64,000 nucleotides of DNA from Sphingosinicella sp. CPCC 101087 (lineage in GTDB: Bacteria; Pseudomonadota; Alphaproteobacteria; Sphingomonadales; Sphingomonadaceae). This document shows, piece by piece, positions 29,612 through 53,742 of this stretch. A program made the translations under genes and the position numbers. The notes below the pieces were generated by a model that was not told the DNA's origin, ran no database searches, and was given only the letters and a program-made list of their open reading frames with translations. The stretch spans positions 1 to 64,000 of the forward strand of contig NZ_SBFF01000009.1 in assembly GCF_004151485.1 (NCBI RefSeq). Reading direction: 5' to 3'. Positions within the stretch are counted from its first letter, which is position 1, and every line of letters starts with the position of its first letter.

Positions 29612-30016
29612 TCAGCGCTTCCTCGATCCCCGTGCGGGCTTGGGCGCGGCCTTCGCCGCTTTCGGTGCCGCCTTGGACTTTCCGGAAGGCGCCCTTTCCG
29701 CCGGCTCGCGCGCCGTCGCTTCCTTCGACCCGCGTGAACGCAGGACCGGCTCGATCAACTTGCGGTCGGATTCCACCTTCCGGTCGAACGCCTCGAGCTC
29801 GCTCCTGAGTGATTTCACGGCCACGTCGATCCGGGCAGCGTAGTCGGCCTTCTCCTTTTCGAGCCGCTCGACCCTGAGCTTGAGCGCGGCCCGGCGGCGT
29901 TCCTGCAGATCGACCGGCAGGGAAAGAGTGGCAGTGCCGGGCGAATCGAAACGGGATGCCTTGTCCATGTCCTCGACCAGCCTCTCCTGCTGCTCGAGCA
30001 ATTTGGCGATGCTCAT
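29612..30016 (-). CDS. Small coiled-coil protein with Lys/Ala-rich tail, last gene of the eCIS operon
   Basis: I do not recognise a family for this 134-residue protein. Residues about 1-95 are strongly charged and predicted-helical in appearance (KLLEQQERLVEDMDKAS, RRRAALKLRVERLEKEKADY), and the last 35 residues are Ala/Lys/Pro-rich (KSKAAPKAAKAAPKPARGSR), reminiscent of histone-H1-like nucleic-acid-binding tails. GGAG lies 8 bases before the ATG. It is 18 bases downstream of the beta-helix gene and on the same strand, so it is probably co-expressed. It could be an assembly factor or a fibre-associated protein; function is unknown. Confidence 0.65.
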   Translation of the reverse strand: MSIAKLLEQQERLVEDMDKASRFDSPGTATLSLPVDLQERRRAALKLRVERLEKEKADYAARIDVAVKSLRSELEAFDRKVESDRKLIEPVLRSRGSKEATAREPAERAPSGKSKAAPKAAKAAPKPARGSRKR

Positions 30017-30034
30017 GCTTGTTCTCCGATCCTG

Positions 30035-33000
30035 TCAGGCGATCATGTTGAAATTGTTCTCGGGCATCGGGAACTGGTTGGCAGGGGGCCGCCCCCAATT
30101 CCCCGAATGCGAGACATTGCCGATGAAGGGCCCCGGCATGTTGTGAAAATGGTAGGACCGGAACGATCGCGTCATCGCCTTGACGTGATTGTTCGCCACC
30201 GAGCAGCGCCGCCCGACGAGCGACACGGTCGCAGCCTGGAATGCGTCGTTGAACGGCAAGCTGGCGTGGAAGCAGTAATTGCCGGTGAAGATGACACGCT
30301 CGAACCGAATGTTGATATTGTCGTTGATCGGCTGCGACAGAAGCTCGACCAGGGCCGTCGCGCCCGTGCCGATGAACTTGTTGTCGGCGATCTGGATCGG
30401 GAAGCCGAGCACGATCTGCCCGTCGGCAAGATCGAGGGGATATTCGAGATATCCGCGCATCAGCAGGGCGCGATCTTCGGCTGTCGGCGGCCGGGCGTTC
30501 ATATCAGAATAGGTGACGAGATTTCCTTGCACGCTGGCTTCCAGGATCAGGTCGCAGGATATGCCCCGCGCCACCGGCGCCACCGGTCCGCCCGCCTGCA
30601 GCGGAAGCCCGATGTTCATGATCTCGTTGCGTTCGATGACCATTTCTCCGAACACCAGATAGGCGCTGATTCCGGTTCCCGTCTCGCTGCCGGAGCCGCA
30701 ATTTTCGATGCGGTTCTCGATCACCTCGAACCGGCCGAGCAGCTGAACGGCCGCGATCCCTTGCGCCGAAAGGCCCGTCATTCGGTTCATCGACACCGTC
30801 GGGCCTGTCTCACGGTACAGGCCGACGCCGATGCCGCCCCCACCCTCGAACCGGTTCCCGGAAATCCGGTTGCGCTCGCCCTCGATTGCGAAGACGCCGA
30901 TAAGGGCGCCGGAAACCTGATTGTCCGAGACCAGCGCCGCGTCGGCGTTGGTAAGCCCGACCCCCAGTCCGGAGGTCCTGCCCGACTGGGCCAGCCTGTT
31001 GCCGGTCACCGACACATGGGCGGCCCCGAGCACGGTGATGCCGTGCTGCGCGCCTTCCACGATGTTTTCCGTGACGATGACTCGCTCGACGGGCAGATAC
31101 TCATTGTCCTCGCCGAACCCGACCGTCACCGCGACCGACTGGCCGACCGCGTCGGCCGCCGACCGGATGACATTGGCGTCGACGATGCTGCCGTCTCCCG
31201 CCACGCGGATGGCGGTGATCCGGCCGCCCTGATGCTCGATCCGGTTGCCGCTCACGATGACGGCCGCAGGGGCGGCGTCGATTCCGAAGCTCGCCTGTCC
31301 GCCGGCCGGCGCCGCGATCAGAGCGATCCGATTTGCGGCGAGCCGGGAGCCAATGGCGAGCGATTGCGGCGGCCCTTCCAAGGTGTCGTTCAGGATTATC
31401 CCGTTGACCGCCTGCTCGATATCGTTGCGCTCGGCGACGAGCGGTCCGATCAGGCCGCGCGCGAAGATGCCGATGGTCGTCGGCTGGTTCGCGGAGATCC
31501 CGGTCGTCGCGATCCTGTTCGACGAGACCTCGACATCCGCGCAGCCGCGATCGAGATGAACGCCGATCGCGACTCCTTCGATCTCGCAGCCGACGATGCA
31601 CAGGTCCTGGGCCTGAAGGGCGATCACGCCCACGGAACCGCCCCGGGCGAACGATTGCAGGCGATTGTCCTCGAACACCATCCCGCTGGTGCCGCGTATG
31701 GCGATCATCGCCGTGCCGCCCGACGCCTCCCCTTCGCGCCAGGTGATGCCGTGGACGCGAATGCCGGGCTGGCCGGGCGCGAAGACGTTGAGCAGGCTGG
31801 AGCCGCCCGACCCCTGCACCACCGCGCCGAGGCTTTCGCCGTGGAGCGAGACGTTGCCGCGATCGATCAGGATCGGTGCCGCTATCGCGTGCAGGCCGGA
31901 TTTTAGGCAGACGCAGCCGCCTTCGTCGGGAAGGGAGTCGATCGCGGCCTGAATGCTGTCGCCGGGCTGGACGACGACGGTGCAGCAGCCGACCGATTCG
32001 GTCGGGCGGGGCCGGCAATCCTCCACCACCTGCGGTGCGCCGCCGGCCGGAACCTCGACCACGGCGAGCCGGCAATAATGATGATGGATTCCGAGCGGCG
32101 GAGCCTCGACGAGCGTCTCGACGACGCGACCCGCCGTGCGCGCCGTGAACAGCCAATGGTCGCCGGGCCTGAACGCACCCCCTGCCGGGTCCAGGCTGAA
32201 GCTCACTTCGACGCCGTCGCCGAGCTGGACGAAGGTGCCTGGAGGCGGGACGGGGATGAGCCCGGCCGAGCCGGGCGCCCCCAGGTCGACCAGCATGTTG
32301 CCGTCGGAGTCGCGGACCACGCCGGACTGGTCCCATTTGCGCAGACGCGGGTGGAAGGCCTGGTCGAGCTCCGGCCCGGCGCCGTCGAAAGCGAGCGTTC
32401 CGGCCGGAAGCGCCGCGCCCAGCGTCACCGTCTGTGCGCCATCGTCGACCGACTGAACCTGCCGGAAGATGCCGGGCGTGCCTTCGAGCTCGCGCCGATC
32501 GTCGGTCACCTCGACCCAGTCTCCCGGATTGAAGCGCATCACGTCGTCGCGCGCGACGCGGGCGACGCGCAGCACATCGCCTGCCGGCAGCGACAGGATC
32601 GCCGTCGCGACGGTCGCATTGTGAATCGCCCATTTGAAGCGGAAGGCGCCAGCCGGGTCCCGGTCGTGGATCTCGACCCGATACAGTCGGTTCTCGAGGC
32701 CGGTATAGCCGCTTCCCGGGGGCAGAAGGCAGGGATCGTTCTGCGGCGGCCCGACATGGGCGCGGCTCGACAGGCGGCCGGCCGAAGGCGTGACGATGTC
32801 GAGCCAACCCGGCACCTCGCCGTCGGGAGTCGCACAGCCCGCATCGCCGACGTCGTCCAGCTCGCGGACCTGCCAGACGGTCTGGCCGCGCCCCGTCGTG
32901 TCGACCGCGACCGCCGGCTCGATCAGGGTCGGATCCTCGAGGTAAGTGACCGTGCGCTGCCAGACGTCGAGATAGAAAATGTGGCGCCCCGGACCGAGCG

Positions 33001-33373
33001 GCCCGGGCGCGAAGCCGGGACGCCAGGGCTGTTCGTCGAAGGGAACGACGCCCATACCCTGCCGCTCGGCGAGGATCGGATTCCACGCGAAAGGCGCATT
33101 GCCGTGATTCTCGGCCTGCAGTCCGTCGACGTAGAGCCGGCCCGGCTGGATGACGATTTCGCCCGCCACGACATCGATCCTGAAGCTGTCCGGCAATGCC
33201 GCCGGCAGCGCCACACGATCGAGGATGTCGAACGTTTCCGAGCGCCACCGCCGATCCTGGATCGCCTCACCCTCCAGGGAATCGGCATCGAGCCTCACCC
33301 GGCCCTGCTGTTCGATCGTCCAGGCATAGTTGTTCCGCGGATCGAAACGAACTCTACTGATGTCCACGGTCAT
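30035..33373 (-). CDS. eCIS-associated giant protein: DUF6519-like N-terminus plus right-handed beta-helix
   Basis: The ATG at 33373 with GAGGAGG six bases upstream starts a 1,112-residue protein, MTVDISRVRFDPRNNYAWTI. The first part (QQGRVRLDADSLEGEA) matches the DUF6519-type entry domain seen in phage-tail-like clusters. From about residue 490 (VVVQPGDSIQAAIDSLPDEG) to near the end there are many PbH1/NosD-type repeats: short turns such as ISGNRFEGG, VTGNRLAQSG, VIENRIENCG. Right-handed beta-helices are used in phage tailspikes and pectate-lyase-like binding proteins, so this is a good candidate for a tail fibre or receptor-binding component. It follows the tail-protein-I gene by 10 bases. 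A glycan target is inference. Confidence 0.8.
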   Translation of the reverse strand: MTVDISRVRFDPRNNYAWTIEQQGRVRLDADSLEGEAIQDRRWRSETFDILDRVALPAALPDSFRIDVVAGEIVIQPGRLYVDGLQAENHGNAPFAWNPILAERQGMGVVPFDEQPWRPGFAPGPLGPGRHIFYLDVWQRTVTYLEDPTLIEPAVAVDTTGRGQTVWQVRELDDVGDAGCATPDGEVPGWLDIVTPSAGRLSSRAHVGPPQNDPCLLPPGSGYTGLENRLYRVEIHDRDPAGAFRFKWAIHNATVATAILSLPAGDVLRVARVARDDVMRFNPGDWVEVTDDRRELEGTPGIFRQVQSVDDGAQTVTLGAALPAGTLAFDGAGPELDQAFHPRLRKWDQSGVVRDSDGNMLVDLGAPGSAGLIPVPPPGTFVQLGDGVEVSFSLDPAGGAFRPGDHWLFTARTAGRVVETLVEAPPLGIHHHYCRLAVVEVPAGGAPQVVEDCRPRPTESVGCCTVVVQPGDSIQAAIDSLPDEGGCVCLKSGLHAIAAPILIDRGNVSLHGESLGAVVQGSGGSSLLNVFAPGQPGIRVHGITWREGEASGGTAMIAIRGTSGMVFEDNRLQSFARGGSVGVIALQAQDLCIVGCEIEGVAIGVHLDRGCADVEVSSNRIATTGISANQPTTIGIFARGLIGPLVAERNDIEQAVNGIILNDTLEGPPQSLAIGSRLAANRIALIAAPAGGQASFGIDAAPAAVIVSGNRIEHQGGRITAIRVAGDGSIVDANVIRSAADAVGQSVAVTVGFGEDNEYLPVERVIVTENIVEGAQHGITVLGAAHVSVTGNRLAQSGRTSGLGVGLTNADAALVSDNQVSGALIGVFAIEGERNRISGNRFEGGGGIGVGLYRETGPTVSMNRMTGLSAQGIAAVQLLGRFEVIENRIENCGSGSETGTGISAYLVFGEMVIERNEIMNIGLPLQAGGPVAPVARGISCDLILEASVQGNLVTYSDMNARPPTAEDRALLMRGYLEYPLDLADGQIVLGFPIQIADNKFIGTGATALVELLSQPINDNINIRFERVIFTGNYCFHASLPFNDAFQAATVSLVGRRCSVANNHVKAMTRSFRSYHFHNMPGPFIGNVSHSGNWGRPPANQFPMPENNFNMIA

Positions 33374-33383
33374 GACGGCCTCC

Positions 33384-35468
33384 TCAGGTCGCGAAGATGG
33401 CGCCGGCTTCCAGCCCGGCGACGAGATATTCTTCCATGCGGATGCGCAGATTGGCCTCGCGCTGCGGCTGATAGAGCTTGTGGAACACGCCCATCTCGCT
33501 TTCGTCGTCCGCGCCGGTACGGATCTCGACCGGCGCCGCCCGCAGCAGTTGGGCATAGCCCGGCCGGCCGTAGCGAAGGTCGGTCCAGGACGGACGCAGC
33601 CGGTCCCGCACGGCATCGACGATCGCATCGGCCTCGGCCGCCGAAAGCATCGGGTTCGCTTCTCGCGCCGTCCTCAGCGCGGCCGCGACGGCGTGGCTCG
33701 GCTGGCAGCGGTGGCGGCGCGGCACCGCCGATCCGGGCGGCACGTAGCTGAACCGGACGCAGCCGATCTGGCGCCGCTCCGCGCGGACCGGGGCGGTCCA
33801 GGTGTCCGCCGGGGCGAGCGCCGCGGCCAGGATGCTGTTGGAAACCAGAGCCATCGTCGCGACATGGATCTTCCCGAACACCGTCGTGTCGATCATGTGC
33901 AAGGTGGGGCCGACGTCGGCACCGTCTGCGCCCGCGATTGCGGGCAGCATGCTGTCCGTCGCGTCGACGATGGAATCGATGATGTGCAGCTGGGTCGAGC
34001 GATCGGCGTGGATCGGCCCCAGGATGGATTGCTCGATCTCGACGAGAACATTCTCGGCCTCGATGAGCAGGCTCGGCGCGCCGGGATTGGTGGGCAGCCC
34101 ATCGAGGCCGAGCCCGTGACCCGGCACCAAGGTGGAATGGCGGATGCGCAGCCGCCGCAGCGCATTGTTCGCCGCCGGCACCCGGATCCGCCCGCCCGCG
34201 ATCAGCAGCCCGTTGAGGGTGACCTCGGCGCCCGCCGCGCCGGTGATGACGAGCTCGCCCGGCAGGTCGATCAGCGGCCGCTGCTGGTTGGCCGCGCGCA
34301 ACTCCACGCGAACGTCGGCGTCGGCCGCAACAGAGACGGAACCCGCATAAGCGAGGCTGTCCGCGATTTCCACCGCACCGCCTCCCTGGACCTGGTCGAG
34401 CTCCGGCTGCAGGACGGTGCCGCCGGAGACGGGACGGACCGGCGCCAGTTCTTCCGCGAAGCTCGCCGCCCGCTCATAGGGTCCGCCGCCGACGTCGGCG
34501 CTGAAGCCGTGATTCCAGCTGACGATCACGACGTCCGGCGCCGGCCGGTTCGGCGGAAAGCTGATCCGGCCCAGCACCGGATCGATGGCGACGACGTCGT
34601 CGGGAGCATGGGCCCAGGCGCCGGCGCCGGCATCGCCGAGATGGCAGCCGCGCACGTCGGCGAGGTCGAGCGCGACGCCGTCCGCCTCGATCGACAAAGC
34701 GCGTGGATAATAGTCCGCGGTGAACTGCGCGAACCGCCGTCGGCCGATCGGCTCGGGGACGTTGAGCGGCCCCGCCAGCGCCACGATGTCCGGTTCCGCG
34801 ACCGGCGCATTGAACAAAGGCGCATCGGCAGCGAGCGGATTGAAGAAGAAGCGCCGCGGATCGGCGGGATGGCGCCCCGCCGCGACCCGCTGAAGCGGGT
34901 AGGCGCGCAGGCGCCACAGGAACAGGCCGATATTGCGGATGTTGTGCCGTCCCTCCCCGATCGCGATGCGGCCCACGTCGATCGTATGGGAGAGGCTGTC
35001 GAAGGCGCTTTCGAGCCGCTCCAGCGGCTCCCAGTGCCTGAGATCAGGGCTGGCCCCGTTGAGCGGGCGTACATGGTTCAGATTCTGGTTCGTGAGCAGG
35101 ATCTGGAAGAATTCCTTCGCGTGCGCCGGCCATCCGGTGACATCGCGCGCAAGCTGCTCGAGCATCACGACGGTGCCCTTGCGCCGACGATAGGCGATGG
35201 TGTTCGCAATCTCCGCGCGCCGGCCGATCGCTGCGGGGATGCCGTGGATCGTGCGATATCCGATCAGGTCGCCGATATAAGGCAGCACCCAATCCGCCGC
35301 GGTTTCGACGAACGCATTGTCGTAGAGGAAGGCAGCGTCCTCCTCAAGGATCCGGGCCTGCTCGCCGAGCACGGTCAGGAACTGGCGAAGCGGATGATCG
35401 AGCTCCGCATCGCGGGTCCGGTGAACCTCCGGCAGCAGGTCGAAAAGCGCTTGTCCGTCCCAGTTCAT
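33384..35468 (-). CDS. eCIS tail-protein-I-like protein with beta-helical C-terminal region
   Basis: The 694-residue protein begins with a phage tail protein I-like domain (FDLLPEVHRTRDAE, FVETAADWVLPYIGDLIGYR, YRRRKGTVVMLEQLARDVTGW), a region shared by eCIS baseplate-periphery proteins. The C-terminal part (about 350-600) has beta-strand repeats resembling a parallel beta-helix (LIAGGRIRVPAANNALRRL, VLVEIEQSILGPIHADRS). Its ATG overlaps the preceding baseplate gene stop. It probably links the baseplate wedge to fibres. Assignment to a specific Pvc number is uncertain. Confidence 0.8.
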   Translation of the reverse strand: MNWDGQALFDLLPEVHRTRDAELDHPLRQFLTVLGEQARILEEDAAFLYDNAFVETAADWVLPYIGDLIGYRTIHGIPAAIGRRAEIANTIAYRRRKGTVVMLEQLARDVTGWPAHAKEFFQILLTNQNLNHVRPLNGASPDLRHWEPLERLESAFDSLSHTIDVGRIAIGEGRHNIRNIGLFLWRLRAYPLQRVAAGRHPADPRRFFFNPLAADAPLFNAPVAEPDIVALAGPLNVPEPIGRRRFAQFTADYYPRALSIEADGVALDLADVRGCHLGDAGAGAWAHAPDDVVAIDPVLGRISFPPNRPAPDVVIVSWNHGFSADVGGGPYERAASFAEELAPVRPVSGGTVLQPELDQVQGGGAVEIADSLAYAGSVSVAADADVRVELRAANQQRPLIDLPGELVITGAAGAEVTLNGLLIAGGRIRVPAANNALRRLRIRHSTLVPGHGLGLDGLPTNPGAPSLLIEAENVLVEIEQSILGPIHADRSTQLHIIDSIVDATDSMLPAIAGADGADVGPTLHMIDTTVFGKIHVATMALVSNSILAAALAPADTWTAPVRAERRQIGCVRFSYVPPGSAVPRRHRCQPSHAVAAALRTAREANPMLSAAEADAIVDAVRDRLRPSWTDLRYGRPGYAQLLRAAPVEIRTGADDESEMGVFHKLYQPQREANLRIRMEEYLVAGLEAGAIFAT

Positions 35469-38182: not shown

Positions 38183-38190
38183 TCCGCCTC

Positions 38191-40680: not shown

Positions 40681-41045
40681 GTCGCGACGCTCCGGCTGAA
40701 GCTGTCGACCCGCGCCTCGCCGGTCTCGCGCAGGACGTAGCGGACCGTCACCTCGATAGAGCCCTCGCCCGCCAGCACGCTGACCTCCTGCGGCTCGATC
40801 TCGTCGCTCAGCCATTGCTGGAGCGCCGACTGGACGATCATCTGGGTCGCGGCGGCGAGGTTGGTGCTCGCGGGTCCGAACAGCAGAGCCATCAGCCCGG
40901 TGCCGAAATCGGGCCGCATGACCCGCTCACCGGGCGCGGTGAAGAGCAGCTGCTCGATCAGCTCGCGGACATGGGCCGCGCGGTCGGCCGCGCCGGCAGT
41001 GCGGCCGCGCCCGTCGAAGCGATAGGGATAGCCGACTTCGGTCAT
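40677..41045 (-). CDS. eCIS baseplate wedge protein, gp25-like (Pvc9-like)
   Basis: The 122-residue protein has the gp25/TssE signature: HVRELIEQLLFTAPGERVMR followed by PDFGTGLMALLFGP, containing the conserved EQLLFT...GER...PDFG arrangement found in T4 gp25, Pvc9 and Afp9. Four-base overlaps join it to both neighbours. In known systems this protein seeds sheath assembly at the baseplate. Confidence 0.93.
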   Translation of the reverse strand: MTEVGYPYRFDGRGRTAGAADRAAHVRELIEQLLFTAPGERVMRPDFGTGLMALLFGPASTNLAAATQMIVQSALQQWLSDEIEPQEVSVLAGEGSIEVTVRYVLRETGEARVDSFSRSVAT

Positions 41046-41365
41046 GTCGCGATCGCCCTCGGTTGCACCACGGTGGGGATGAGCGGCGTGCCGGTCGGCG
41101 CGCAGATCGCCTGGCTGTCCATCAGCAGCAATGGCTGACCCATCGCCAGCACGCGCAGCGCCGACGTGACGAACTGGGCCGTGACGCACGGCCCGTTGGC
41201 GGCGGGCGGCGGCGGAAGGGCGCAGCCGGCGACGAGCCACGGCGCCGGGAGGGTCGCCACCGGCTGGCCGCTGACCAGAACCCGCGGCACGGTGACGCTC
41301 GGCGTCCCCTGGCCGGCATGGGCGCAAAGCACGGTCGCGCCGAGATGGAGGATCGGCCCGGGCAT
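41042..41365 (-). CDS. eCIS spike-tip protein, PAAR-like (Pvc10-like)
   Basis: The 107-residue protein begins MPGPILHLGATVLCAHAGQG and is rich in Gly, Pro and short hydrophobic beta segments with His/Cys residues suited to metal binding, as in PAAR-repeat cone proteins that sharpen VgrG spikes. The classical PAAR motif is not clearly repeated, so this is a family-level call helped by position directly after the OB-fold spike gene, with which it overlaps by one base. Confidence 0.75.
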   Translation of the reverse strand: MPGPILHLGATVLCAHAGQGTPSVTVPRVLVSGQPVATLPAPWLVAGCALPPPPAANGPCVTAQFVTSALRVLAMGQPLLLMDSQAICAPTGTPLIPTVVQPRAIAT

Positions 41366-43013: not shown

Positions 43014-43362
43014 CGGATTTGCTCCCGCCGGCGCGGGTGACCGCGACGTGGAGCGTGTCGCCCGGCCGCGCGGTCAGAGAGGGGGCGTCGAGCAGGTTGG
43101 CGTCGCACAGCCGCCACATCTGGGTGGGATCGCCGAACTGACGCGCCGCCACATGGTCGGCGCGCTCTCCCGGCGCGACGCGGTGCCGCCCCACGACGTC
43201 GAGGTCGGAAGGCTGCGGCGCGAACCGCCGCTTGAGATAGACCCGTGTCTCCCCGTTCGGCAGCAGGAGCAGGTTGACGCCGAGCCCGTGATAGCGGCTG
43301 TTCGGCGAAAAGGCGCTGGCCTCGAGTCCCGGCGCGGCGAGCATGGCGGCTATGTCGGTCAT
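43006..43362 (-). CDS. eCIS small baseplate protein with LysM / tail-X-like domain
   Basis: This 118-residue protein has a C-terminal segment (RHRVAPGERADHVAARQFGD, TQMWRLCDANLLDAPSLTAR, GDTLHV) matching the LysM/tail-X pattern used to stabilise the hub in phage tails and in Pvc7. The N-terminal half contains NSRYHGLG and YLKRRFAPQP. It overlaps both neighbours. Together with the preceding gene it probably corresponds to a split Pvc7. Confidence 0.75.
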   Translation of the reverse strand: MTDIAAMLAAPGLEASAFSPNSRYHGLGVNLLLLPNGETRVYLKRRFAPQPSDLDVVGRHRVAPGERADHVAARQFGDPTQMWRLCDANLLDAPSLTARPGDTLHVAVTRAGGSKSGA

Positions 43363-44003: not shown

Positions 44004-44005
44004 CG

Positions 44006-46153: not shown

Positions 46154-46329
46154 GACCCTTCTCCCCCGGCCGCGCGAGCGATGCGCGTGACGACCGCGCG
46201 CGCCGACGCTCGGTCCGCTGCCCGATCCGGCTCGATCTCTCGCGCGATCATTCGGCGGAATCGGTCGGCGTCGAACCCGGCGCCGACGGACAGGGCGCCG
46301 ATCCGGATCCTGATGTCGCGACCGCTCAT
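46150..46329 (-). CDS. Small 59-residue protein between the eCIS ATPase and DUF4157 genes
   Basis: The frame MSGRDIRIRIGALSVGAGFD...is joined by four-base overlaps to both the ATPase gene stop and the DUF4157 gene start, the same coupling used across the operon, which supports it being a real gene. It is Arg/Ala-rich with no recognised domain. It could be an assembly chaperone or adaptor for the DUF4157 protein; that is speculation from position. Confidence 0.7.
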   Translation of the reverse strand: MSGRDIRIRIGALSVGAGFDADRFRRMIAREIEPDRAADRASARAVVTRIARAAGGEGS

Positions 46330-48176
46330 GCCCGCCTCCGCCCGCGCGCCAGCTGGAGCATCATCTGCGGGGCCCCCAGCTTCGCCCCCTCGGCGCCGAT
46401 CGCGCCCCTTATGTGCTCGGGGCCGATCTTCCGGCCCGCCTCGGCGGCATTGAAGGCCGCATTGAGCGCGATGTTGCGGATGCTGCCGCCGGCAAGCGAC
46501 AGGTGCGAGAGCTCGGCCCAGTCGGGCGAGCCGGCGACGAGCGTGGCCGGCAGGGCTCGACGCCACAATTCCTCCCGCAGGCGCCGATCGGGGAAGGGGA
46601 AATGGACGACGAAGCGGATCCGGCGCAGGAACGCGTCATCGATCGCCGATTTCTGATTGGTGGTCAGGATGGCGAGGCCGCGATAGGCCTCCATCCGCTG
46701 GAGCAGGTAGCTGACCTCGAGATTCGCGTAGCGGTCGTGGCTGTCATGGACTTCGCTGCGCTTGCCGAAGATCGCATCGGCTTCGTCGAACAGCAGAACG
46801 GCGCCGCCCGCCTCGCCCGCGGCGAAGACCCGGTCGATATTCTTCTCGGTCTCGCCGATATATTTGCTTACCACCTGGGACAGGTCGATGTGGAGCAGGT
46901 CCAGGTTCAGCTGCGCCGCGAGGGCCTCCGCGGCGGTCGTCTTGCCCGATCCGCTCGGCCCGGAGAACAGGGTGGTGATGCCGAGGCCGCGGTCGCTCTT
47001 GCCGGCCATTCCCCAGCTTCCATAGACTTTCGCCTGATGGCGCACCTGCGCCCCGATCGCATCGATGGAGCGGCGCTGAGCCTCGGGCAGGACGATATCG
47101 TCGAGCGTCACGGAAGAGATCACCCGTCGCACGATCGGTCCGGCGTCGCGCCGGGTACGCCGCCGCGCCTGGTCCCACGCGCGCTCGACGATGGGGCGCC
47201 TGCCGCGCTCCGCCTTCGCCTCGGCGCCGGCGCTTGCGATCTCCGCCGGGGACAGCGCGAACTGCCAGGCGAGGCGCTCGAGATCCGGGTCGCCGGCATC
47301 GACGTGAAGCGCCCCGGCCCAGAGTATCGCTCGCTCGCGAAAGCTGACAGGCGGGAGCTCGACGCGAAGGAGATCGCGTTGGGTCATGCCAACTCGGCCC
47401 ACCATGAAGAGCGGACCGGAGAAACTGTCGACGAACGGCGCGAGCCAGGGGCTGGGCGCGTCTCCCGGGTCGATGACCGGAACGATCCCCGCAAGGAGCA
47501 GGTCGCGCTCCCATAGTCGCGCACTGTCGCGCAGGGATTCGCCGTCGGCCAGCAGTGCGGTCAGCCCGACCCGATCGGCCGCGGCCTGAGCGACGGCGAG
47601 ACGATCGGACCGGCTGCCCCCGTCCAGCTCGAATGCGGGCACGGGCGAACCTGCACGCAGGCGGCGAGCGAGCTGTTCTGCCAACTCGACATGCGCGCCG
47701 GGCAGGGTCCCGGCTTCGATCGACGCAGCTTCGCGGCTGACGTCGCTGGTCCGCTCGGCGGTCCCGGTGAGCCAATGCAGAAGCGCCGGATCGACTCGAA
47801 GGGGGGCCTGGATGAGAGGTCTGCCCTGCTGAACCTCGATCAGTCGCCAGCGGCGAAGCGACTGGTCGGGTGAGAGCGCGCTCCAGTGCGGTTCGGCCAG
47901 AGTGGCGAAGGCGACCTGCGCCGTCGGAGCGATGCCGGATGCCGCAAGGCCGCCGTCGAGCTCGACCGCCACCGCCATGATCAGCAGTTCCCGCTCGAAG
48001 GCGGTCAGCGACAGACGGTCGGAAAGGAGGTCGATCCTGAACGGCTTGCCCTTGATAGGGGCAGGTGGCTTTGGCTGAGCTCCTTCGCTGTTCGTCATCA
48101 GCGCCGCGACGCGGCCGATCTCCGCCGCGAGATGGTCGCGATTTGCTTCCAGCCAACTGGAACGGGTGCCGCTCAT
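46326..48176 (-). CDS. eCIS AAA+ ATPase (Pvc15-like)
   Basis: The ATG at 48176 overlaps the DUF4255 gene stop and gives 616 residues. The C-terminal AAA+ module has Walker A GPSGSGKTTAAE (about residue 405), Walker B VLLFDEADAIFGKR, sensor-1 LTTNQ and arginine-finger region FLRRIRF. The N-terminal 350 residues form a divergent domain typical of Pvc15/Afp15 (LLSDRLSLTAFERELLIMAV). In Photorhabdus this ATPase is needed for cargo loading or assembly. It is one of the most diagnostic eCIS genes since phages lack it. Confidence 0.95.
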   Translation of the reverse strand: MSGTRSSWLEANRDHLAAEIGRVAALMTNSEGAQPKPPAPIKGKPFRIDLLSDRLSLTAFERELLIMAVAVELDGGLAASGIAPTAQVAFATLAEPHWSALSPDQSLRRWRLIEVQQGRPLIQAPLRVDPALLHWLTGTAERTSDVSREAASIEAGTLPGAHVELAEQLARRLRAGSPVPAFELDGGSRSDRLAVAQAAADRVGLTALLADGESLRDSARLWERDLLLAGIVPVIDPGDAPSPWLAPFVDSFSGPLFMVGRVGMTQRDLLRVELPPVSFRERAILWAGALHVDAGDPDLERLAWQFALSPAEIASAGAEAKAERGRRPIVERAWDQARRRTRRDAGPIVRRVISSVTLDDIVLPEAQRRSIDAIGAQVRHQAKVYGSWGMAGKSDRGLGITTLFSGPSGSGKTTAAEALAAQLNLDLLHIDLSQVVSKYIGETEKNIDRVFAAGEAGGAVLLFDEADAIFGKRSEVHDSHDRYANLEVSYLLQRMEAYRGLAILTTNQKSAIDDAFLRRIRFVVHFPFPDRRLREELWRRALPATLVAGSPDWAELSHLSLAGGSIRNIALNAAFNAAEAGRKIGPEHIRGAIGAEGAKLGAPQMMLQLARGRRRA

Positions 48177-49462
48177 GCCGGCACCGTGATGAACTGTGCC
48201 GGTTCGAAGACCGGCGGTCGCTGCGTGCGATCGATCAGCCAGCTGTCGACGCCGTCGATGCGCAGCCGCGCCGGCTGGCTGCCGGCGGGCAGCGCTTCGA
48301 ACCGGAAATGCAGCTGGTCGGCGGGCGCCGGCAAGGCATCGGTGACGGCCTCGCGGCTGCCGATCGTCAGTGAGACGATCTGGCCCGGCCGCACGCGCGG
48401 AACGACGTCGAGATCGACATCGACGCTGCCGTCGGGCGCGCGCACAATGGCCATTGGCGGCAGGTCCATCACTGGCGCGATGGCGAGGCCGAAGCCGTTG
48501 GTGCGGCGCGGCGCGGGCTCGCCGGCGAGCTGGACGTCCAGCTCGATCGTGAACGGACCGGCACCCCAGTTTGCGGCATCGTTGGGGATCTCGACCTCGA
48601 CCTGCCGGTCGCTGACGCCGGCCGCCGGAACCAGTATGGGATCCTCGAAGCGCGGATTGGTGAAGCGGGCGACCACCGGGTTTCCGCCGAGATGGTGACC
48701 ACGAAGAATGATCGTGTCGCCGAGCCGCGCGCTCGGCTGGCCCAACGGCAAGGTCAGGCCGGCGATGGCCGGATAGGGCGGCACGAGGTCCGGCTGCAGC
48801 GTCACGCCCGTATGCCCGACGCCGAGCGTCAGCACGGGCAGCGGATTGCGCGCTGGCCGCGTCGCCTCGATCAGCAGGACTGTGACGACATAGGCGGCCG
48901 AGCTGCGGAGGCTCGCCGCGCACGCCGTCCAGAGCTTCGACTGATCGTCGAGGCTGAGATAGGCCGGGTTGATTCGGATCTGCTCGAGCTGATCGGCAAG
49001 CCCGGTATTGGCGAGCGACTGGAGGGCGGGCGGCAGATCGCCGCCGATCAGCGGAAGCGAGTCGAGCGCCGTTCGGATCTCCTCGCGGCCGATGACCGGA
49101 TGCTCGTGGAGGATCTGGAGCACGTGGCCGAGCAGGATCTCGGCATGAAGATCGGCCGCGCCATAGGCGCTCACCAGATAGTGCAGATCGATGGCGAGCG
49201 GCGTGTTCGCGACGCGATCGCCGTTCGCGTTGCGGGTCGGCAGAACCTGGTTCGCGAGACCCGTATTGAGGCTGATCCGGTGCATGAACATGTTCAGCAC
49301 CGACTCGCCTTCCTGAATCTCCTCCTCCACCAGATCCGGTGCGCGGGCCCGGACGTTGACGTTGCCGCCGAGAGTGCCGGAAACGTCCGCGTCGATCATG
49401 GCGTCGTTGACCAGGTCGCGCAGGATCTGCGTCACCCCGGCGATGGCGAGTGCCGTGCTCAT
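48173..49462 (-). CDS. eCIS DUF4255 (Pvc16-like) tail-cap protein with IPT/TIG-like extension
   Basis: The ATG at 49462 (MSTALAIAGVTQILRDLVND) starts a 429-residue protein. Residues about 1-190 match DUF4255: VLNMFMHRISLNTGL, LAIDLHYLVSAYGAADLHAE, ILLGHVLQILHEHPVI. This region caps the tube-sheath end. The C-terminal half, absent from short Pvc16 proteins, contains an IPT/TIG-like Ig fold (ARLGDTIILRGHHLGGNPVV) and further beta-rich sequence, so the cap may carry surface-exposed Ig domains. Overlapping starts and stops join it to both neighbours. Confidence 0.9.
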   Translation of the reverse strand: MSTALAIAGVTQILRDLVNDAMIDADVSGTLGGNVNVRARAPDLVEEEIQEGESVLNMFMHRISLNTGLANQVLPTRNANGDRVANTPLAIDLHYLVSAYGAADLHAEILLGHVLQILHEHPVIGREEIRTALDSLPLIGGDLPPALQSLANTGLADQLEQIRINPAYLSLDDQSKLWTACAASLRSSAAYVVTVLLIEATRPARNPLPVLTLGVGHTGVTLQPDLVPPYPAIAGLTLPLGQPSARLGDTIILRGHHLGGNPVVARFTNPRFEDPILVPAAGVSDRQVEVEIPNDAANWGAGPFTIELDVQLAGEPAPRRTNGFGLAIAPVMDLPPMAIVRAPDGSVDVDLDVVPRVRPGQIVSLTIGSREAVTDALPAPADQLHFRFEALPAGSQPARLRIDGVDSWLIDRTQRPPVFEPAQFITVPA

Positions 49463-50136
49463 CGCCGCCCCTCGCGACGGGCTGCGCGATAATCGTCGAG
49501 CGTCAGCATCCGCGCTCTGGCCGGCGCTGGCGAGGCGACCTCGATGCGGCCGATCTCGATCGTCACGCGATCCGGCGCGGCCGGGGCCTGCGGGACGGTC
49601 GAGACAGCAGCGGTCGGCGCCGTCGGTGCGGTGGCCGGTGGCTCGACCCGAGGCACGGCAGCCTTTCCTGCATCGCGACCTTCCTCGCGGACGGGCACGA
49701 GCTTGGCGATGCGCTGCCGCTTCTCCGGCTCGAGCGGCGACCTTGAGGGGCGGCGCGCGGGCCTGAGACCCGCCGACGCGGGCTCGGGGCCCGGGCGGCA
49801 GACCGGCTCCTGCACCGGATCGGGGGCATCCGGCCGAAGGAGCCCGGTCTCGAGGTGCGGTGCGGAGCGCGGGGGCTCGCGGCCGGCTTTCTCGGGATCT
49901 GGCTTCGCTTCCGGCTCCTGCCCCGCCGGCTGATCCGTGCGCGCGGCCCGGACGTCGGCGGCGACGTGACTCTCGCGTCGCATCGCAATCGGTCGCGAGC
50001 TCGCACCGCCCTCTCCCAGCGGCTCGCTTTCCCATGGCTCATCCGCTTCCGGCTCCGCCACCATCGGCGGAGTGATCGGCCGGACGGCACTCTGTCCTTC
50101 GACCACGCGGGCGATGAGGCCGTCCAGCGCGCTCAT
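49459..50136 (-). CDS. Proline-rich, probably disordered eCIS protein
   Basis: The 225-residue protein (MSALDGLIARVVEGQSAVRP) starts by overlapping the zinc-binding gene stop and ends by overlapping the DUF4255 start. Its middle is dominated by Pro, Glu, Arg and Ala without hydrophobic core, and it ends in a conserved-looking segment TIEIGRIEVASPAPARARML-TLDDYRAARREGRR. No family is recognised. Similar low-complexity genes are common between tube and cap genes in eCIS loci; a role in length control or as a scaffold is possible but unproven. The longer frame upstream is a shadow of the neighbouring gene. Confidence 0.7.
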   Translation of the reverse strand: MSALDGLIARVVEGQSAVRPITPPMVAEPEADEPWESEPLGEGGASSRPIAMRRESHVAADVRAARTDQPAGQEPEAKPDPEKAGREPPRSAPHLETGLLRPDAPDPVQEPVCRPGPEPASAGLRPARRPSRSPLEPEKRQRIAKLVPVREEGRDAGKAAVPRVEPPATAPTAPTAAVSTVPQAPAAPDRVTIEIGRIEVASPAPARARMLTLDDYRAARREGRR

Positions 50137-50807
50137 GCCGCCGAAAGCTCCAGATAGGCCGCCCGGCGTGCTTCCGGCAGCTTCAGAATCTCGCTTTCCG
50201 TCCAGCCATAGGCGCAGGCCAGGCGGTGAATCTGGGACAGCAGATGCCGCGCCCGATCTTCCACCTTGGCCCACAGGAAGGCGCCGACGTCGAATCCGAA
50301 CACCGTCTCGGCTCCGCAGTCCGGGCAGGTCACGGCAATCTGGGGATCGAGCAGAGGATCCGCGGCGAGAAGCGCGGCGCCCACCTGCTCGGCCTCGCCC
50401 GCTCCGAGCTCGCCTTTCCCGGCGCACAGTTCGGCAAGGCGGCGCGACGGGTCCGGAGCCGCGACGGCGGCGAGGACATCGTGCGTCGTCGGAAATCGCA
50501 CCGGGACTCGCTCGCCGTCGATCTCGACCAGGATCGGCGCGGTCGGCGGCCCGGACATCAGCATGTCCACGGACGCCGCCACCTCGATCGCGCCACCGCA
50601 GGAATCGCATTCCGCGACGCCGGCCAGATGAGCCCCGGCCATGCCGGCAAAGAGCTCGAGCAGCCGCCGGTCGCGCACACCGATCGGCAACCGCTCGGGT
50701 TCGGCTTCGCCGCCGAGCCTCGCGAGCAAGGTCGCGGCACGCCGCGCCGGCGGCTGCGGCCGCGCATGCGTCCAGGCGTCGAGAAAGAGGCGGGCGCCGT
50801 CGGTCAT
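50133..50807 (-). CDS. eCIS baseplate/hub assembly protein with two CxxC zinc-binding motifs
   Basis: The ATG at 50807 overlaps the tube gene stop, giving 224 residues (MTDGARLFLDAWTHARPQPP). Two cysteine pairs, CDSCG at about residue 78 and CPDCG at about residue 161, would bind zinc. The overall plan (Cys pairs, an acidic/helical C-terminus with SQIHRLACAYGWTESEILKL) resembles the T4 gp26/gp28-like baseplate hub proteins that often lie beside tube genes in Mu-like and eCIS loci. The IHxLA-YGW-xxEIL pattern is the clearest mark of that family. Confidence 0.78.
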   Translation of the reverse strand: MTDGARLFLDAWTHARPQPPARRAATLLARLGGEAEPERLPIGVRDRRLLELFAGMAGAHLAGVAECDSCGGAIEVAASVDMLMSGPPTAPILVEIDGERVPVRFPTTHDVLAAVAAPDPSRRLAELCAGKGELGAGEAEQVGAALLAADPLLDPQIAVTCPDCGAETVFGFDVGAFLWAKVEDRARHLLSQIHRLACAYGWTESEILKLPEARRAAYLELSAA

Positions 50808-51331
50808 AGCGGCTCGGTGAAGCTGGGCTCGGACGGCTCGGTGACTTCGGGATCGCGCTCCCACCCCTCATTCTCGAGCTTCAGGGTCTGGATCGCGATG
50901 GCGCTGGCGCTCGCATCGAGGTCGGGCAGCGACTGGAACTCGGATACCCAGCAGCGGAACAGCTTGTAGGCGATGGCGAGCTGGCCGGCCTCGTTATAGA
51001 CCTCGATGATCAGGTCCTTGCGGAAGTCCTTGAGCGACACTTCCGCCCCCAGTCCCGAACCGAAGTTCCAGACCTTGTTGGCCCATTGCTCGAAATGCTT
51101 GTCATGGGTGACGCCGCGTTCGAGCGTCACGGCTTCATATTTGGTCTGACCGGGCGAGCGGCGGACGCTGCTTGGATCGCCGCCTTCGCGATGTTCGACC
51201 ACCTCGGTGGTGCGCTTGAGCGCGCTCACCTTGCTGATGCCGGCGACATAGTCGCCGCCGACCTCGCGGACGCGGAACTTGAAGCTCTTGTAGGGATCGA
51301 AGCGTTGCGCGTTGACCGTGAACCTGGCCAT
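50804..51331 (-). CDS. eCIS inner tube protein (phage tail tube, gp19-like)
   Basis: The 175-residue protein has the Pvc1/gp19 tube pattern: DPYKSFKFRVREVGGDYVAG, SKVSALKRTTEVVEHREGGD, PGQTKYEAVTLERGVTHDKH, FEQWANKVW, and KDLIIEVYNEAGQLAIAYKL. It is 12 bases downstream of the sheath gene. Only one tube gene is present, whereas Photorhabdus cassettes have two or three. The C-terminus is extended by an acidic tail. Confidence 0.94.
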   Translation of the reverse strand: MARFTVNAQRFDPYKSFKFRVREVGGDYVAGISKVSALKRTTEVVEHREGGDPSSVRRSPGQTKYEAVTLERGVTHDKHFEQWANKVWNFGSGLGAEVSLKDFRKDLIIEVYNEAGQLAIAYKLFRCWVSEFQSLPDLDASASAIAIQTLKLENEGWERDPEVTEPSEPSFTEPL

Positions 51332-51343
51332 GGCCGTCTCTCC

Positions 51344-53326
51344 TTATGCCTGGGCCTGGCCAGCAAGCAGCTGCAGGCTGATGATGACGAATTCGGCCGG
51401 CTTGAGCGGCGCGAAGCCGACGAAGACGTTGACGATGCCGGCGTCGATGTCGGCCTGGGTGGTCGTCTCGGCATCGCATTTGACCAGATAGGCCTCGCGC
51501 GGCGACTTGCCCTGAAACGCCCCCTGCCGGAAAAGCCCCTGCATGAAGGATCCGGCCGCGGCACGGATCTGCGCCCAGAGCGGTGCGTCATTGGGCTCGA
51601 AGACGACCCATTGCAGGCCACGGAAAAGCGATTCCTCGATGAACAAGGCGGTCCGCCGCACCGGCACATATTTCCAGTCGGAAGCGAGCGCATCGGCGCC
51701 GACCAGGGTTCGGGCGCCCCACAGGACGTTTCCGGGCAGGTCGAACGTCCGGACGGCATTGAGGCCGACCGGGTTGAGCTGCCCATGCTCGGGATCGCTG
51801 AGCTTGTAGTCGATGTCGATCACGCCCCGAAGCGTCGTCTCGATTCCGGCGGGCGCCTTCCAGACGCCGCGCGCGGCGTCGGTGCGGGCATAGATACCCG
51901 CGACCGTGCCGCTGGAGCCGATCAGGCGCGGCCGCCCCTGGTTCAGCGGGTCGGGAATGGCGAGCCGCGGGAAATATGCGGCGGCGTTGCGGTGGCGCAG
52001 GCCGGCGGTCGTGACCTCGCCCAGCCAGGTCTGCGCGCCGTCCAGCGAGCCTGTGTTCGGCTCGACGTCGACCAGCACGAAGGCACGGCGCTGCTCGGCG
52101 AAGTTGATCGCCCCGCTCATCACCTGCGAGAGGTCGGCGACGCTGCCGAGAAGCGCCGCGTCCGGGATGAACAAGATGTTGAACAGGTCGATTTCCTCGA
52201 GCGCGAAGACGCCGGTGCGGCTTCCCGTCGTGCCGAGCAGGTCAGCCGCCGCCAGCGGATCGCTTTCCGTCCCGGCCACCGCCGAGCGCATGAAGCCGGC
52301 AGGCAGGGCGGCAGCGCTTCCGAGCGCATATTGCTGTACGTTCTCCGTCGCGTCGTCGGCTGCGCGCAGGGCAAGCCGCTCGGCGAGATTGCCCGCATTG
52401 TCCGCGAAGGTGACGATGATGTCGGGTCGGTAGGTCGCGGCGTTCCGGCCGGCGAGCACGCGCAGGCGCCCGTCCTGCGTGGTCTGAACGGTCGCACCCG
52501 CCCACAAGGGATCGCCGGGCTGAGCGGCGCGGATTGCGGCTTCGAGCCGGCCGCGCGCGTCGGCGAGGGTGGTGATCGGGTTGAGGTTCACGTCGTTGAC
52601 GACCACCGGCTGCGCGCCCGCACCGAAATCGACATCGATCGTATTGTCGTCGGCGATCGTGCCGAACTGGGTGATGTCGATGACGGCGCTCACCGTTCCG
52701 GTCGCGGCGGGCCGGAACAGGCCCCAGCCATTATCCCGCGAAAGCTGGATCATCCTGGATCCGGAATTCACCACTTCGATCACATTGTTGGGCGCGCCCT
52801 CGACCATGGTGAGATTCCGGAAGGTCTCGGTACGGGCGACGATCTCGCGGCCGTCCTCGAGCCGGACCTCGCTGACGGTGAGGTTGAATTCGGCTGCCGC
52901 GTCGCGCGCGTCATGATCGACGTCGATGCGCAGATTGTCTCCCCAGGGGCCGGGATCGTCGACGCTGACGCCGCGGATCATCCGGCCGGCGGTGGCCTCG
53001 AGCGACTCGCCTTGCCCGCCGGCGTCATTATGATCGAAGACCGCCGACGCTGCCCCGGCACCTGGGGCAACCCGAACGATCCAGATCTGGGATCCGCCGT
53101 TCAGGAAATATTGCTGAACCTGATAGCTGGCCTCATGATCGATCGCGAGGCCGCCGAAATCCCGCTCGAAATCCCCGAGGTTGAACGCCGCGACGGCCGC
53201 ATCCGCCGGCCCGCGCGCAAAGGTGCCGACGATCGCGCCGATCGAGGTGGCGACACCGATGATCGGCCGGACGCCACTGGGCAGCTCCTGAATATAGACA
53301 CCGGGATAAGTGGGAGAAACGGGCAT
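51344..53326 (-). CDS. eCIS contractile sheath protein
   Basis: The 660-residue protein begins with the sheath signature PTYPGVYIQELPSGVRPIIG, ATSIGAIVGTFARGP, and ends with the strongly conserved C-terminal block: GIYARTDAARGVWKAPAG, GARTL, WKYVPVRRTALFIEESLFRG, QWVVFEPNDAPLWAQIR, ETTTQADIDAGIVNVFVGFA, PLKPAEFVII. The middle (about 130-400) is larger than in Pvc2 (about 355 residues total), so this sheath carries a big outward-facing insertion. AAGGAG lies about 8 bases before the ATG. One sheath gene only is present. Confidence 0.97.
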   Translation of the reverse strand: MPVSPTYPGVYIQELPSGVRPIIGVATSIGAIVGTFARGPADAAVAAFNLGDFERDFGGLAIDHEASYQVQQYFLNGGSQIWIVRVAPGAGAASAVFDHNDAGGQGESLEATAGRMIRGVSVDDPGPWGDNLRIDVDHDARDAAAEFNLTVSEVRLEDGREIVARTETFRNLTMVEGAPNNVIEVVNSGSRMIQLSRDNGWGLFRPAATGTVSAVIDITQFGTIADDNTIDVDFGAGAQPVVVNDVNLNPITTLADARGRLEAAIRAAQPGDPLWAGATVQTTQDGRLRVLAGRNAATYRPDIIVTFADNAGNLAERLALRAADDATENVQQYALGSAAALPAGFMRSAVAGTESDPLAAADLLGTTGSRTGVFALEEIDLFNILFIPDAALLGSVADLSQVMSGAINFAEQRRAFVLVDVEPNTGSLDGAQTWLGEVTTAGLRHRNAAAYFPRLAIPDPLNQGRPRLIGSSGTVAGIYARTDAARGVWKAPAGIETTLRGVIDIDYKLSDPEHGQLNPVGLNAVRTFDLPGNVLWGARTLVGADALASDWKYVPVRRTALFIEESLFRGLQWVVFEPNDAPLWAQIRAAAGSFMQGLFRQGAFQGKSPREAYLVKCDAETTTQADIDAGIVNVFVGFAPLKPAEFVIISLQLLAGQAQA

Positions 53327-53382
53327 GGTCGCGCTCCTTGGAAAAGTGTCTCATGCGGCCGGCGTCGCCGGGTCGGCATTAA

Positions 53383-53742
53383 TCATGGGAGAAGCTCCGC
53401 CACCTGCCTCACGGCGTTGGCGAAGGCCGAATCGTTGTCCTGGTCGAACCGGACCCGCCGGGCCGCGATGTCGACCGCCCGCCCTTCTCTGCCGTCGCGA
53501 GCGATGGCGAAGATCTTGAGTGGCGGGCGGCGCAGTATCGCCTCCAGACAAGTGGTGCCGGTCGCCGTGGGCTCGATCGTGATCAGCATGTCGGCCTGCT
53601 CCTCAAGCGCTCGGACCAGCGGGTCTTCCTCGGGCCCGGTGCTGCCGACCACGACGAGGTCGGCCTCGCGGCTGATCAGCTCTTCGACGCCGGCGAGCAA
53701 AGTCGCGGGCATATGGCTGAGGTGAATGCGTATCGGATCCAC
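53383..53742 (-). CDS. Small hypothetical protein with receiver/Rossmann-like features, first gene of the eCIS run
   Basis: I chose a GTG at 53742, giving 119 residues (VDPIRIHLSHMPATLLAGVE); the frame is open further up and an ATG at 53712 is also possible. The sequence alternates beta strands and helices: EADLVVVGSTGPEEDPLVRA, ADMLITIEPT, KIFAIARDG, resembling a receiver-like or Rossmann-like alpha/beta protein, but I cannot assign a family. It ends 57 bases before the sheath gene on the same strand, so it is probably the first gene of the eCIS operon and a candidate regulator or adaptor. Confidence 0.6.
   Translation of the reverse strand: MDPIRIHLSHMPATLLAGVEELISREADLVVVGSTGPEEDPLVRALEEQADMLITIEPTATGTTCLEAILRRPPLKIFAIARDGREGRAVDIAARRVRFDQDNDSAFANAVRQVAELLP

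What the first reader, a model, noticed from the sequence alone, without database searches (positions are those of the whole stretch)
29612..53742. Complete extracellular contractile injection system (eCIS) locus in a sphingomonad-like genome
One strand over about 24 kb carries sheath, tube, zinc baseplate protein, DUF4255 cap, AAA+ ATPase, DUF4157, LysM, hub, spike, PAAR-like, gp25, two J-like proteins, tail-I-like and beta-helix genes, almost all joined by 4-base overlaps. Phage head, replication and lysis genes and T6SS membrane genes are absent. The DUF4255 plus Pvc15-like ATPase plus DUF4157 set is characteristic of eCIS. Target cells and cargo are unknown.
Basis: partly seen in the sequence, partly recalled or inferred. 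Interest (0 to 1): 0.88.

Follow-up and report, generated by a model that had tools for sequence, protein, structure and literature searches.

The report
Bacterial nanosyringe operon with shared switch
This stretch encodes what looks like a complete phage-tail-like protein-injecting nanosyringe of a widespread known type, and beside it sits a small two-gene control module that also turns up next to different nanosyringes in related bacteria.

Summary
A 19-gene minus-strand operon (53326-29612) plus an upstream gene (53742-53383) encodes a contractile injection system of the eCIS family; 11 of 18 junctions are 4-base overlaps. It is the genome's only Pvc16_N and eCIS_core locus, and T6SS IcmF was not found. 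Its core gene order is complete in 63 of 80 relatives' loci from many phyla. So it is a new member of a known kind: single sheath and tube, split hub and spike, no recognised tape measure. "Extracellular" is plausible (DUF6519/beta-helix fibre, no anchor seen) but unproven: the nearest solved sheaths come from the cytoplasmic Streptomyces and the membrane-bound archaeal systems.

Not found in print is the switch: a divergent LuxR-type regulator with a degenerate receiver, and a stand-alone pseudo-receiver as first gene. The regulator occurs in 9 of 397 family genomes; eight carry Pvc16_N, and all eight have the pseudo-receiver gene upstream of the eCIS. Six of the other seven show a different, double-sheath machine (the seventh contig ends too early), and the Sphingobium sister locus lacks the pair. 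A palindrome (GGACCN4GGTCC) is shared by several loci. How the pair works is inferred.

The parts
54176..54889 (+). LuxR/NarL-type regulator with degenerate receiver (acidic pair, switch Thr and Lys lost; Asp kept)
   Evidence: GerE 66.8 bits; Response_reg only 14.3 bits against cut-off 30.2; alignment with two canonical regulators
53922..53935 (.). palindrome GGACCN4GGTCC, candidate operator between the divergent regulator genes
   Evidence: 10 exact places in the 4.70 Mb own genome
53383..53742 (-). stand-alone pseudo-receiver protein, 119 aa (GTG start assumed), first gene of the operon
   Evidence: no Pfam match
51344..53326 (-). contractile sheath, 660 aa
   Evidence: Phage_sheath_1C; best solved relative 8bky
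50804..51331 (-). inner tube, 175 aa
   Evidence: Phage_T4_gp19 145.5 bits; 79-88% identical in the 80 loci kept
50133..50807 (-). zinc-ribbon baseplate-like protein, 224 aa
   Evidence: sub-threshold T4_baseplate and zinc ribbon; matched in 79 of 80 relatives' loci
49459..50136 (-). low-complexity, probably disordered protein, 225 aa
   Evidence: no family and no sequence match in the 80 loci; many relatives have an unmatched gene at this place
48173..49462 (-). tail cap/terminator, Pvc16-like, 429 aa
   Evidence: Pvc16_N 138.9 bits, cut-off 27
46326..48176 (-). AAA ATPase, Pvc15-like by position, 616 aa
   Evidence: AAA 89.1 bits; matched in 66 of 80 relatives' loci
46150..46329 (-). small protein, 59 aa, at the place of an about 85 aa gene in many relatives
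   Evidence: no sequence match found
44006..46153 (-). DUF4157/eCIS_core protein, 715 aa, HELAH motif, helical middle domain, charged C-terminal part with hydrophobic helices: candidate cargo
   Evidence: eCIS_core 67.5 bits; only one in genome
43359..44003 (-). CIS_tube-family protein, 214 aa
   Evidence: PF19266 29.4 bits, cut-off 27
43006..43362 (-). small baseplate protein, 118 aa (LysM-like by eye only)
   Evidence: no Pfam match; matched in 27 of 80 loci, many of which end before it
41883..43013 (-). hub, 376 aa
   Evidence: no Pfam or PDB match; position and relatives
41365..41886 (-). spike OB-fold protein, 173 aa
   Evidence: Phage_base_V 71 bits
41042..41365 (-). PAAR/DUF4280-like tip, 107 aa
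   Evidence: sub-threshold matches
40677..41045 (-). gp25 baseplate wedge, 122 aa
   Evidence: GPW_gp25 63.5 bits
38191..40680 (-). baseplate J-like protein 1, 829 aa
   Evidence: Baseplate_J; TIGR02243; best solved relative 9gtp
35465..38182 (-). baseplate J-like protein 2, 905 aa
   Evidence: Baseplate_J
33384..35468 (-). tail-protein-I-like baseplate protein, 694 aa
   Evidence: no Pfam match; 67% identical Sphingobium counterpart
30035..33373 (-). tail fibre: DUF6519 (eBAP5) anchor and right-handed beta-helix, 1112 aa
   Evidence: DUF6519 109.3 bits, Beta_helix 77.6 bits; PMC12923769 passages
29612..30016 (-). small Lys/Ala-rich protein, 134 aa, last gene
   Evidence: 30% identical Sphingobium counterpart at the same place

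Best explanation
The locus encodes one contractile injection system of the eCIS family. Sheath and tube polymerise on a baseplate made of the hub, spike, tip, gp25, the two J proteins and the tail-I-like protein, and are closed by the Pvc16-like cap. The AAA ATPase probably serves loading or assembly. The DUF4157 protein is the most likely cargo. The DUF6519/beta-helix fibre probably binds a surface molecule of a target cell and triggers contraction, which drives tube, spike and cargo through the envelope. Release to the outside is the most likely mode, since there is a fibre and no membrane anchor was seen. Expression is most likely set by the divergent LuxR-type regulator together with the pseudo-receiver encoded as the operon's first gene; with their receiver active sites degraded and no kinase gene among the neighbours, control would be by protein contact or dose rather than by phosphorylation. 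Shown here: gene content, order, relatives, and co-occurrence of the regulator pair with eCIS. Inferred: particle formation, release, target, cargo activity and regulation.
For: Family matches. Core order in 63 of 80 relatives' loci, and 17 of the 19 genes matched in the same order in Sphingobium arseniciresistens. Sole Pvc16_N and eCIS_core locus of a genome rated 99.96% complete, IcmF absent. Fibre anchor class known. No clear transmembrane segment by a simple hydropathy scan; the one window above 2 is in the hub. Regulator pair: 9 of 397 family genomes carry the regulator, 8 of these carry Pvc16_N, and the pseudo-receiver gene lies upstream of the eCIS in all 8; the window pseudo-receiver scores 28.9 bits against a profile of the others, best of 300 shuffles 8.2.
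Against: The closest solved sheaths belong to systems that do not act outside the cell. No lysis gene was recognised. No tape-measure gene was recognised, though the Streptomyces and haloarchaeal systems are also reported without one. Cargo activity is untested. The palindrome is imperfect in several loci, absent at two or fewer mismatches from G419 and from the G302 upstream stretch, and not enriched in the genome. The structure model of the pseudo-receiver is poor (mean pLDDT 46).
Confidence: 0.62

Rival explanations
1. A cytoplasmic contractile injection system like that of Streptomyces coelicolor, which stays in the producing cell and fires at its own membrane under stress.
For: Best solved sheaths are 8bky and 8bl4, deposited with the Streptomyces system, and the best solved J relative is 9gtp, the Streptomyces particle (PMC10066040 and PMC12237407 passages). 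Both systems lack a typical tape measure.
Against: A DUF6519 fibre follows the baseplate genes, where Streptomyces has the membrane-protein gene cisA, and no transmembrane protein was seen in the operon. The tube profile matches the cyanobacterial tube best (73 bits) and the Streptomyces tube weakly (35 bits).
Confidence: 0.2
2. A membrane-anchored, T6SS-like system as in haloarchaea, or one like the thylakoid-anchored system of cyanobacteria.
For: The haloarchaeal sheath 9ezm is the third-best solved relative, 218 bits against 239 for the best; that system also lacks a tape measure and carries DUF4157 genes in its interspacing region.
Against: No anchor-like membrane gene seen in the operon; IcmF absent genome-wide.
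Confidence: 0.12
3. A defective prophage or R-type tailocin.
For: Sheath, tube, spike, gp25 and J also match phage tail families.
Against: Pvc16_N and eCIS_core are eCIS marks; no capsid, portal or terminase in the window; all frames intact; order conserved across phyla.
Confidence: 0.02

Closest known systems
The same operon in Sphingobium arseniciresistens H39-3-25 (JARFNK010000020.1; loci L035 and L185)
   Same: 17 of the 19 genes matched in the same order; sheath 70%, tube 88%, hub 82%, spike 92%, fibre 55% identical
   Different: No pseudo-receiver gene found in the held stretch upstream (six-frame scan) and no close regulator in the genome: best 81 bits against 206-355 bits for the eight eCIS-linked ones; cargo only 36% identical. 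The variable gene after the zinc protein and the 59 aa gene gave no match
Streptomyces coelicolor cytoplasmic CIS (type IId; PMC10066040 and PMC12237407, passages read)
   Same: Closest solved sheath and J protein; no typical tape measure
   Different: Reported without a conventional tail fibre and dependent on the membrane protein CisA; here a DUF6519 fibre is present and no such membrane protein was seen
Halogeometricum borinquense T6SS-like CIS (PMC11566945, passages read)
   Same: Third-closest solved sheath, tape measure missing, DUF4157 genes inside the cluster
   Different: Acts bound to the membrane, with a putative six-helix anchor of which no counterpart was seen here
eBAP5 (DUF6519) tail-fibre class (PMC12923769, passages read)
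   Same: DUF6519 anchor and beta-helix tip
   Different: That paper correlates the class with Actinobacteriota; this is a relative from the order of a Sphingobium-like genome
GerE/LuxR regulators beside eCIS (PMC8213781, passages read)
   Same: A LuxR-type gene next to an eCIS operon, reported for 25.8% of loci
   Different: The degenerate receiver, the pseudo-receiver partner and its use by two machine types are not in the passages I saw

Membership tests
eCIS family | contractile sheath and gp19-type tube | tested here: met
eCIS family | Pvc16-like cap (Pvc16_N) | tested here: met
   138.9 bits, cut-off 27
eCIS family | AAA ATPase in the operon | tested here: met
   AAA 89.1 bits; no Pvc15-specific model was run
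eCIS family | eCIS_core (DUF4157) protein | tested here: met
   67.5 bits, cut-off 22
eCIS family | baseplate: spike, gp25, J proteins | tested here: met
eCIS family | tail fibre with a known eCIS baseplate-anchoring domain | tested here: met
   DUF6519, listed as eBAP5 in PMC12923769
eCIS family | no phage head genes beside it | tested here: met
   Pfam on 28 flanking genes of the window; beyond the window not tested
eCIS family | no T6SS membrane complex | tested here: met
   IcmF-related family absent from the genome; other T6SS genes not tested
eCIS family | tape-measure gene (Afp14) | tested here: inconclusive
   none recognised by Pfam; reported lacking also in Streptomyces and haloarchaeal relatives
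eCIS family | particle released to the outside | not testable with these tools
   needs microscopy
cytoplasmic CIS of Streptomyces (type IId) | sheath closest to the Streptomyces sheath among solved ones | tested here: met
   239 and 230 bits to 8bky and 8bl4; haloarchaeal 9ezm close behind at 218
cytoplasmic CIS of Streptomyces (type IId) | CisA-like bitopic membrane protein after the baseplate genes | tested here: not met
   that place holds the DUF6519 fibre; no clear transmembrane segment by hydropathy
cytoplasmic CIS of Streptomyces (type IId) | no conventional tail fibre | tested here: not met
   DUF6519 fibre present
receiver domain (the 119 aa protein) | homology to receivers | tested here: met
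   12 of the 34 weaker matches of its profile were read and all 12 are ordinary receivers, 17-37 bits; Pfam itself finds nothing
receiver domain (the 119 aa protein) | catalytic acidic pair and phospho-Asp | tested here: not met
   by eye; hence pseudo-receiver
annexin (middle domain of the DUF4157 protein) | annexin repeat | tested here: inconclusive

The most novel reading that the evidence does not exclude
Sphingomonad injection systems are run by a kinase-free switch made of two degenerate receivers, one on a LuxR-type DNA-binding protein and one stand-alone and encoded as the first gene of the weapon operon. The switch is a unit in its own right that has been joined to unrelated injection machines, so that machines are exchanged beneath a conserved control module.
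Probability: 0.42. Interest if true: 0.62.

Novelty: new member of a known kind. Interest (0 to 1): 0.45.

Why it matters
The machine adds an intact, single-copy example from a sphingomonad-like genome to a widespread branch in which the mode of action is undecided, with one clear cargo candidate. The regulator pair gives a handle on two open matters: what turns eCIS operons on, and how pseudo-receivers are controlled, which a 2025 review calls a mystery (PMC12632262, abstract and passages read).

Tried and rejected
Prophage or tailocin: rejected, no head genes in the window and eCIS marks present.

Tape-measure role for the DUF4157 protein: considered because it lies between ATPase and the CIS_tube gene. 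Held unlikely, because that slot holds one to three DUF4157 genes of very different length in many relatives, and in others none was recognised there (a single gene of about 1,600 aa in L042, L071 and L079; a 221 aa gene in L107 and L114). Not excluded.

Annexin-like middle domain: suggestive fold only, no sequence support. Foldseek gave no match at E 0.001 or better.

Structure of the pseudo-receiver from one sequence: poor model, not searched. DUF4157 model: only about residues 160-277 confident.

Operator: GGTCC-0-GGACC, GGACC-4-GGTCC and CGGCC-2-GGCCG tie as best palindromes with summed mismatches 9 over seven upstream stretches; the best of each of 150 Markov shuffles was never below 10. 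The third may be base composition. In the window, copies with at most one mismatch are not clearly beyond chance (9 found, mean 4.84, 6 of 100 shuffles as many). The exact pattern is not enriched in the genome (10 places, 24 for the reversed control). Single shared words were not clearly beyond chance (a 6-base word in all seven stretches, reached by 7 of 30 shuffles; a 7-base word in six, reached by 2 of 30).

The regulator tree does not nest the window copy inside the double-sheath set (it falls beside the other five of a 96/96 group, 81/83), so the direction of exchange is open. In the sheath tree four of five single-sheath family loci that I tried to add were lost because my pattern missed them; 13 rows remained. 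The gene caller failed on several GC-rich loci (for example G196; L041, L045, L062, L101, L105); one search repeats the order test without it.

My first paper search on sphingomonads was too loose to test anything: all 15 listed papers had no CIS term. replace it.
Full report
WHAT IS THERE. The minus strand from 53326 to 29612 carries 19 intact genes, with 11 of 18 junctions overlapping by 4 bases. A further gene, 53742-53383, lies 56 bases upstream, and a regulator gene diverges at 54176-54889. Pfam assigns sheath, tube, Pvc16_N cap, AAA ATPase, eCIS_core, CIS_tube, Phage_base_V spike, gp25, two Baseplate_J proteins, and DUF6519 plus beta-helix, each over a curated cut-off. The zinc baseplate, PAAR-like, hub and tail-I-like genes are not confirmed by Pfam and rest on position and relatives.

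ONE OF A KIND IN ITS GENOME. The 4.70 Mb genome, rated 99.96% complete, has one Pvc16_N match, one eCIS_core match and no IcmF match. Among 296 genomes of the order, own included, 15 have Pvc16_N; among 397 of the family, 29. So such loci are an accessory trait of some 5-7% of genomes.

RELATIVES. A tube alignment found 459 relatives in genome contigs; the best 80 were kept. Sheath, tube, zinc protein, cap and ATPase are all found in this order in 63 of the 80, with a DUF4157 match after the ATPase in 54; in the other 17 fewer were found, in order; none was out of order. The hosts include Nitrospira, Lysobacter, Chloroflexota, cyanobacteria and archaea. The tube is 79-88% identical in these loci, which were chosen by tube similarity and so are biased; median identity of the other parts that gave matches lies between 33 and 61%. 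In Sphingobium arseniciresistens 17 of the 19 genes are matched in the same order; the variable gene after the zinc protein and the 59 aa gene gave no sequence match, though a 62 aa gene sits at the latter's place.

WHICH BRANCH. By sequence the nearest solved sheaths are 8bky and 8bl4 (239 and 230 bits; Streptomyces paper) and 9ezm (218 bits; haloarchaea), then 9qgl, which I did not identify (161), and PVC, the cyanobacterial and Afp sheaths (144 to 134; origin of the first three from passages). The J protein agrees; the tube does not, its profile scoring best with the cyanobacterial tube and weakly with the Streptomyces one. Like those two systems, this one has no recognisable tape measure. 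Unlike Streptomyces it has a DUF6519 fibre, a class described in 2026 as eBAP5, often ending in beta-helix folds. The hot-spring CIS paper warns that mode of action cannot be read reliably from sequence alone (PMC12998442, passages). I therefore put release to the outside first, but not firmly.

CARGO. The slot after the ATPase holds one to three DUF4157 genes of very different size in many relatives. DUF4157 is a known mark of eCIS toxins (PMC8213781, passages), and haloarchaeal DUF4157 proteins were among the CIS-dependent secreted proteins (PMC11566945, passages). Here the protein has the HELAH motif, a helical middle domain (about residues 160-277, the only confident part of the model) and a long charged part with hydrophobic helices. 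Against Sphingobium it is 36% identical; only the last gene, at 30%, is lower among the matched genes. An annexin-like fold of the middle domain is possible but unproven; annexin domains fused to DUF4157, and annexin among eCIS-linked domains, have been reported (PMC3894181 and PMC8213781, passages).

THE SWITCH. The regulator 54176-54889 has a GerE domain and a degenerate receiver: acidic pair changed to Ser-Asn, switch Thr to Gly, Lys to Asp, Asp kept. In the three eCIS-linked relatives aligned with it Thr and Lys are also lost, Asp is kept, and the first acidic residue is lost, while two of the three keep an acidic residue at the second place. In 296 genomes of the order, four genomes, own included, have a match of 42% identity or more, and all four matches lie beside eCIS genes; three further genomes have weaker matches, 27-34% (neighbours). 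With a profile of these four, 9 of 397 family genomes match at 1e-40. Eight of the nine have Pvc16_N; of the five genomes not used to build the profile, four do. In seven of the eight the regulator lies beside the eCIS; in G302 it is on another contig. The ninth, G525, has the gene at the edge of a contig in an assembly of about 430 contigs and no Pvc16_N match. In a class-wide sample of 289 genomes only two match, both of the family.

The small gene lies directly before the first machine gene in all eight. Leave-one-out profiles over seven members give the window copy 28.9 bits against a best of 8.2 in 300 shuffles; six of seven pass, G019 does not (7.4 bits, 1 of 300 shuffles as high). The G302 copy, not used there, was found at 2e-8 before its cap gene. 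A six-frame scan of the 171 loci then held found it at no other eCIS locus; the next matches, about 17 bits, are receivers of ordinary regulators or the G419 regulator itself. For four of the 29 eCIS genomes (G105, G480, G511, G518) I held only some 1.5 kb either side of the Pvc16_N match. In 298 family genomes 39 match the eight-member profile at 1e-5: the eight members score 92-128 bits, by construction, and the others 37 bits or less. Twelve of those 34 weaker matches were read, and all are ordinary receivers. So the protein is a receiver without its catalytic residues. Because members are so divergent, a far relative elsewhere could have been missed.

The window machine is single-sheath and lies with Sphingobium. 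Six of the other seven loci with the pair have two sheath and two tube genes (in G238 the second sheath by position only); the G454 contig ends before the sheath genes. In the sheath tree those six fall in a group of eight with 100/99 support, which also holds G005 and G177, without the regulator. The regulator clade holds both kinds (100/100). The Sphingobium locus lacks the pair. Hence pair and machine have separate histories, in which direction I cannot say.

OPERATOR. Between the two genes the window has GGACCATTCGGTCC, read on the minus strand (53922-53935). G454 has a perfect copy, G039 and G238 one mismatch, G019 and G409 two, G419 three; none at two or fewer before the G302 small gene. 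None of 150 shuffles gave a palindrome as well shared, but two other palindromes tie. The exact pattern occurs at 10 places in the genome, against 24 for the reversed control.

PAPERS. Two papers hold both 'contractile injection system' and 'Sphingomonas'; the passages show that neither describes a sphingomonad system. No held paper has both 'contractile injection' and 'pseudo-receiver', and PMC8213781 has no 'receiver' or 'response regulator' in its main text. The library holds open-licence papers only. The dbeCIS type scheme (Chen et al. 2019) is known to me only through other papers. The host genus was not named by any search; 'sphingomonad' rests on the closest named locus and is likely, not shown.

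VERDICT. Observation right, filing right at family level, extracellular mode open. The machine is ordinary of its kind; the regulator pair is the part worth following.

Noticed in passing
55892-57793 (+), with 2161-7164 (-): An RTX calcium-binding repeat protein beside the eCIS regulator, and a type I secretion set (ABC exporter, HlyD, outer membrane efflux protein) at the left end of the window.
   Followed up: no
50804-51331 and the 80 loci: The tube protein is about 80% identical between this genome, Nitrospira, Chloroflexota and an archaeal locus while other parts have medians of 33-61%. The loci were chosen by tube similarity, so the size of the effect is biased.
   Followed up: partly
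L034:9104-10204 (genome G062): A lone tube gene (66% identical to the window tube) with a short gene matching Pvc16_N and no sheath match nearby: perhaps a remnant.
   Followed up: no
L032:10424-10702 (genome G177): A double-sheath eCIS locus without the regulator pair has another small gene before the cap, DUF3467-like by eye only; L163, L167 and L168 have a gene of like size at that place whose sequence I did not look at.
   Followed up: no
L027 and L028 (genome G064): A single-sheath operon in which two DUF4157 genes lie at the end, after a gene similar to the fibre, rather than after the ATPase.
   Followed up: no
58602-63234 (+): Ectoine cluster: acetyltransferase, class III aminotransferase, ectoine synthase, PhyH dioxygenase and aspartokinase-like genes.
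   Followed up: no
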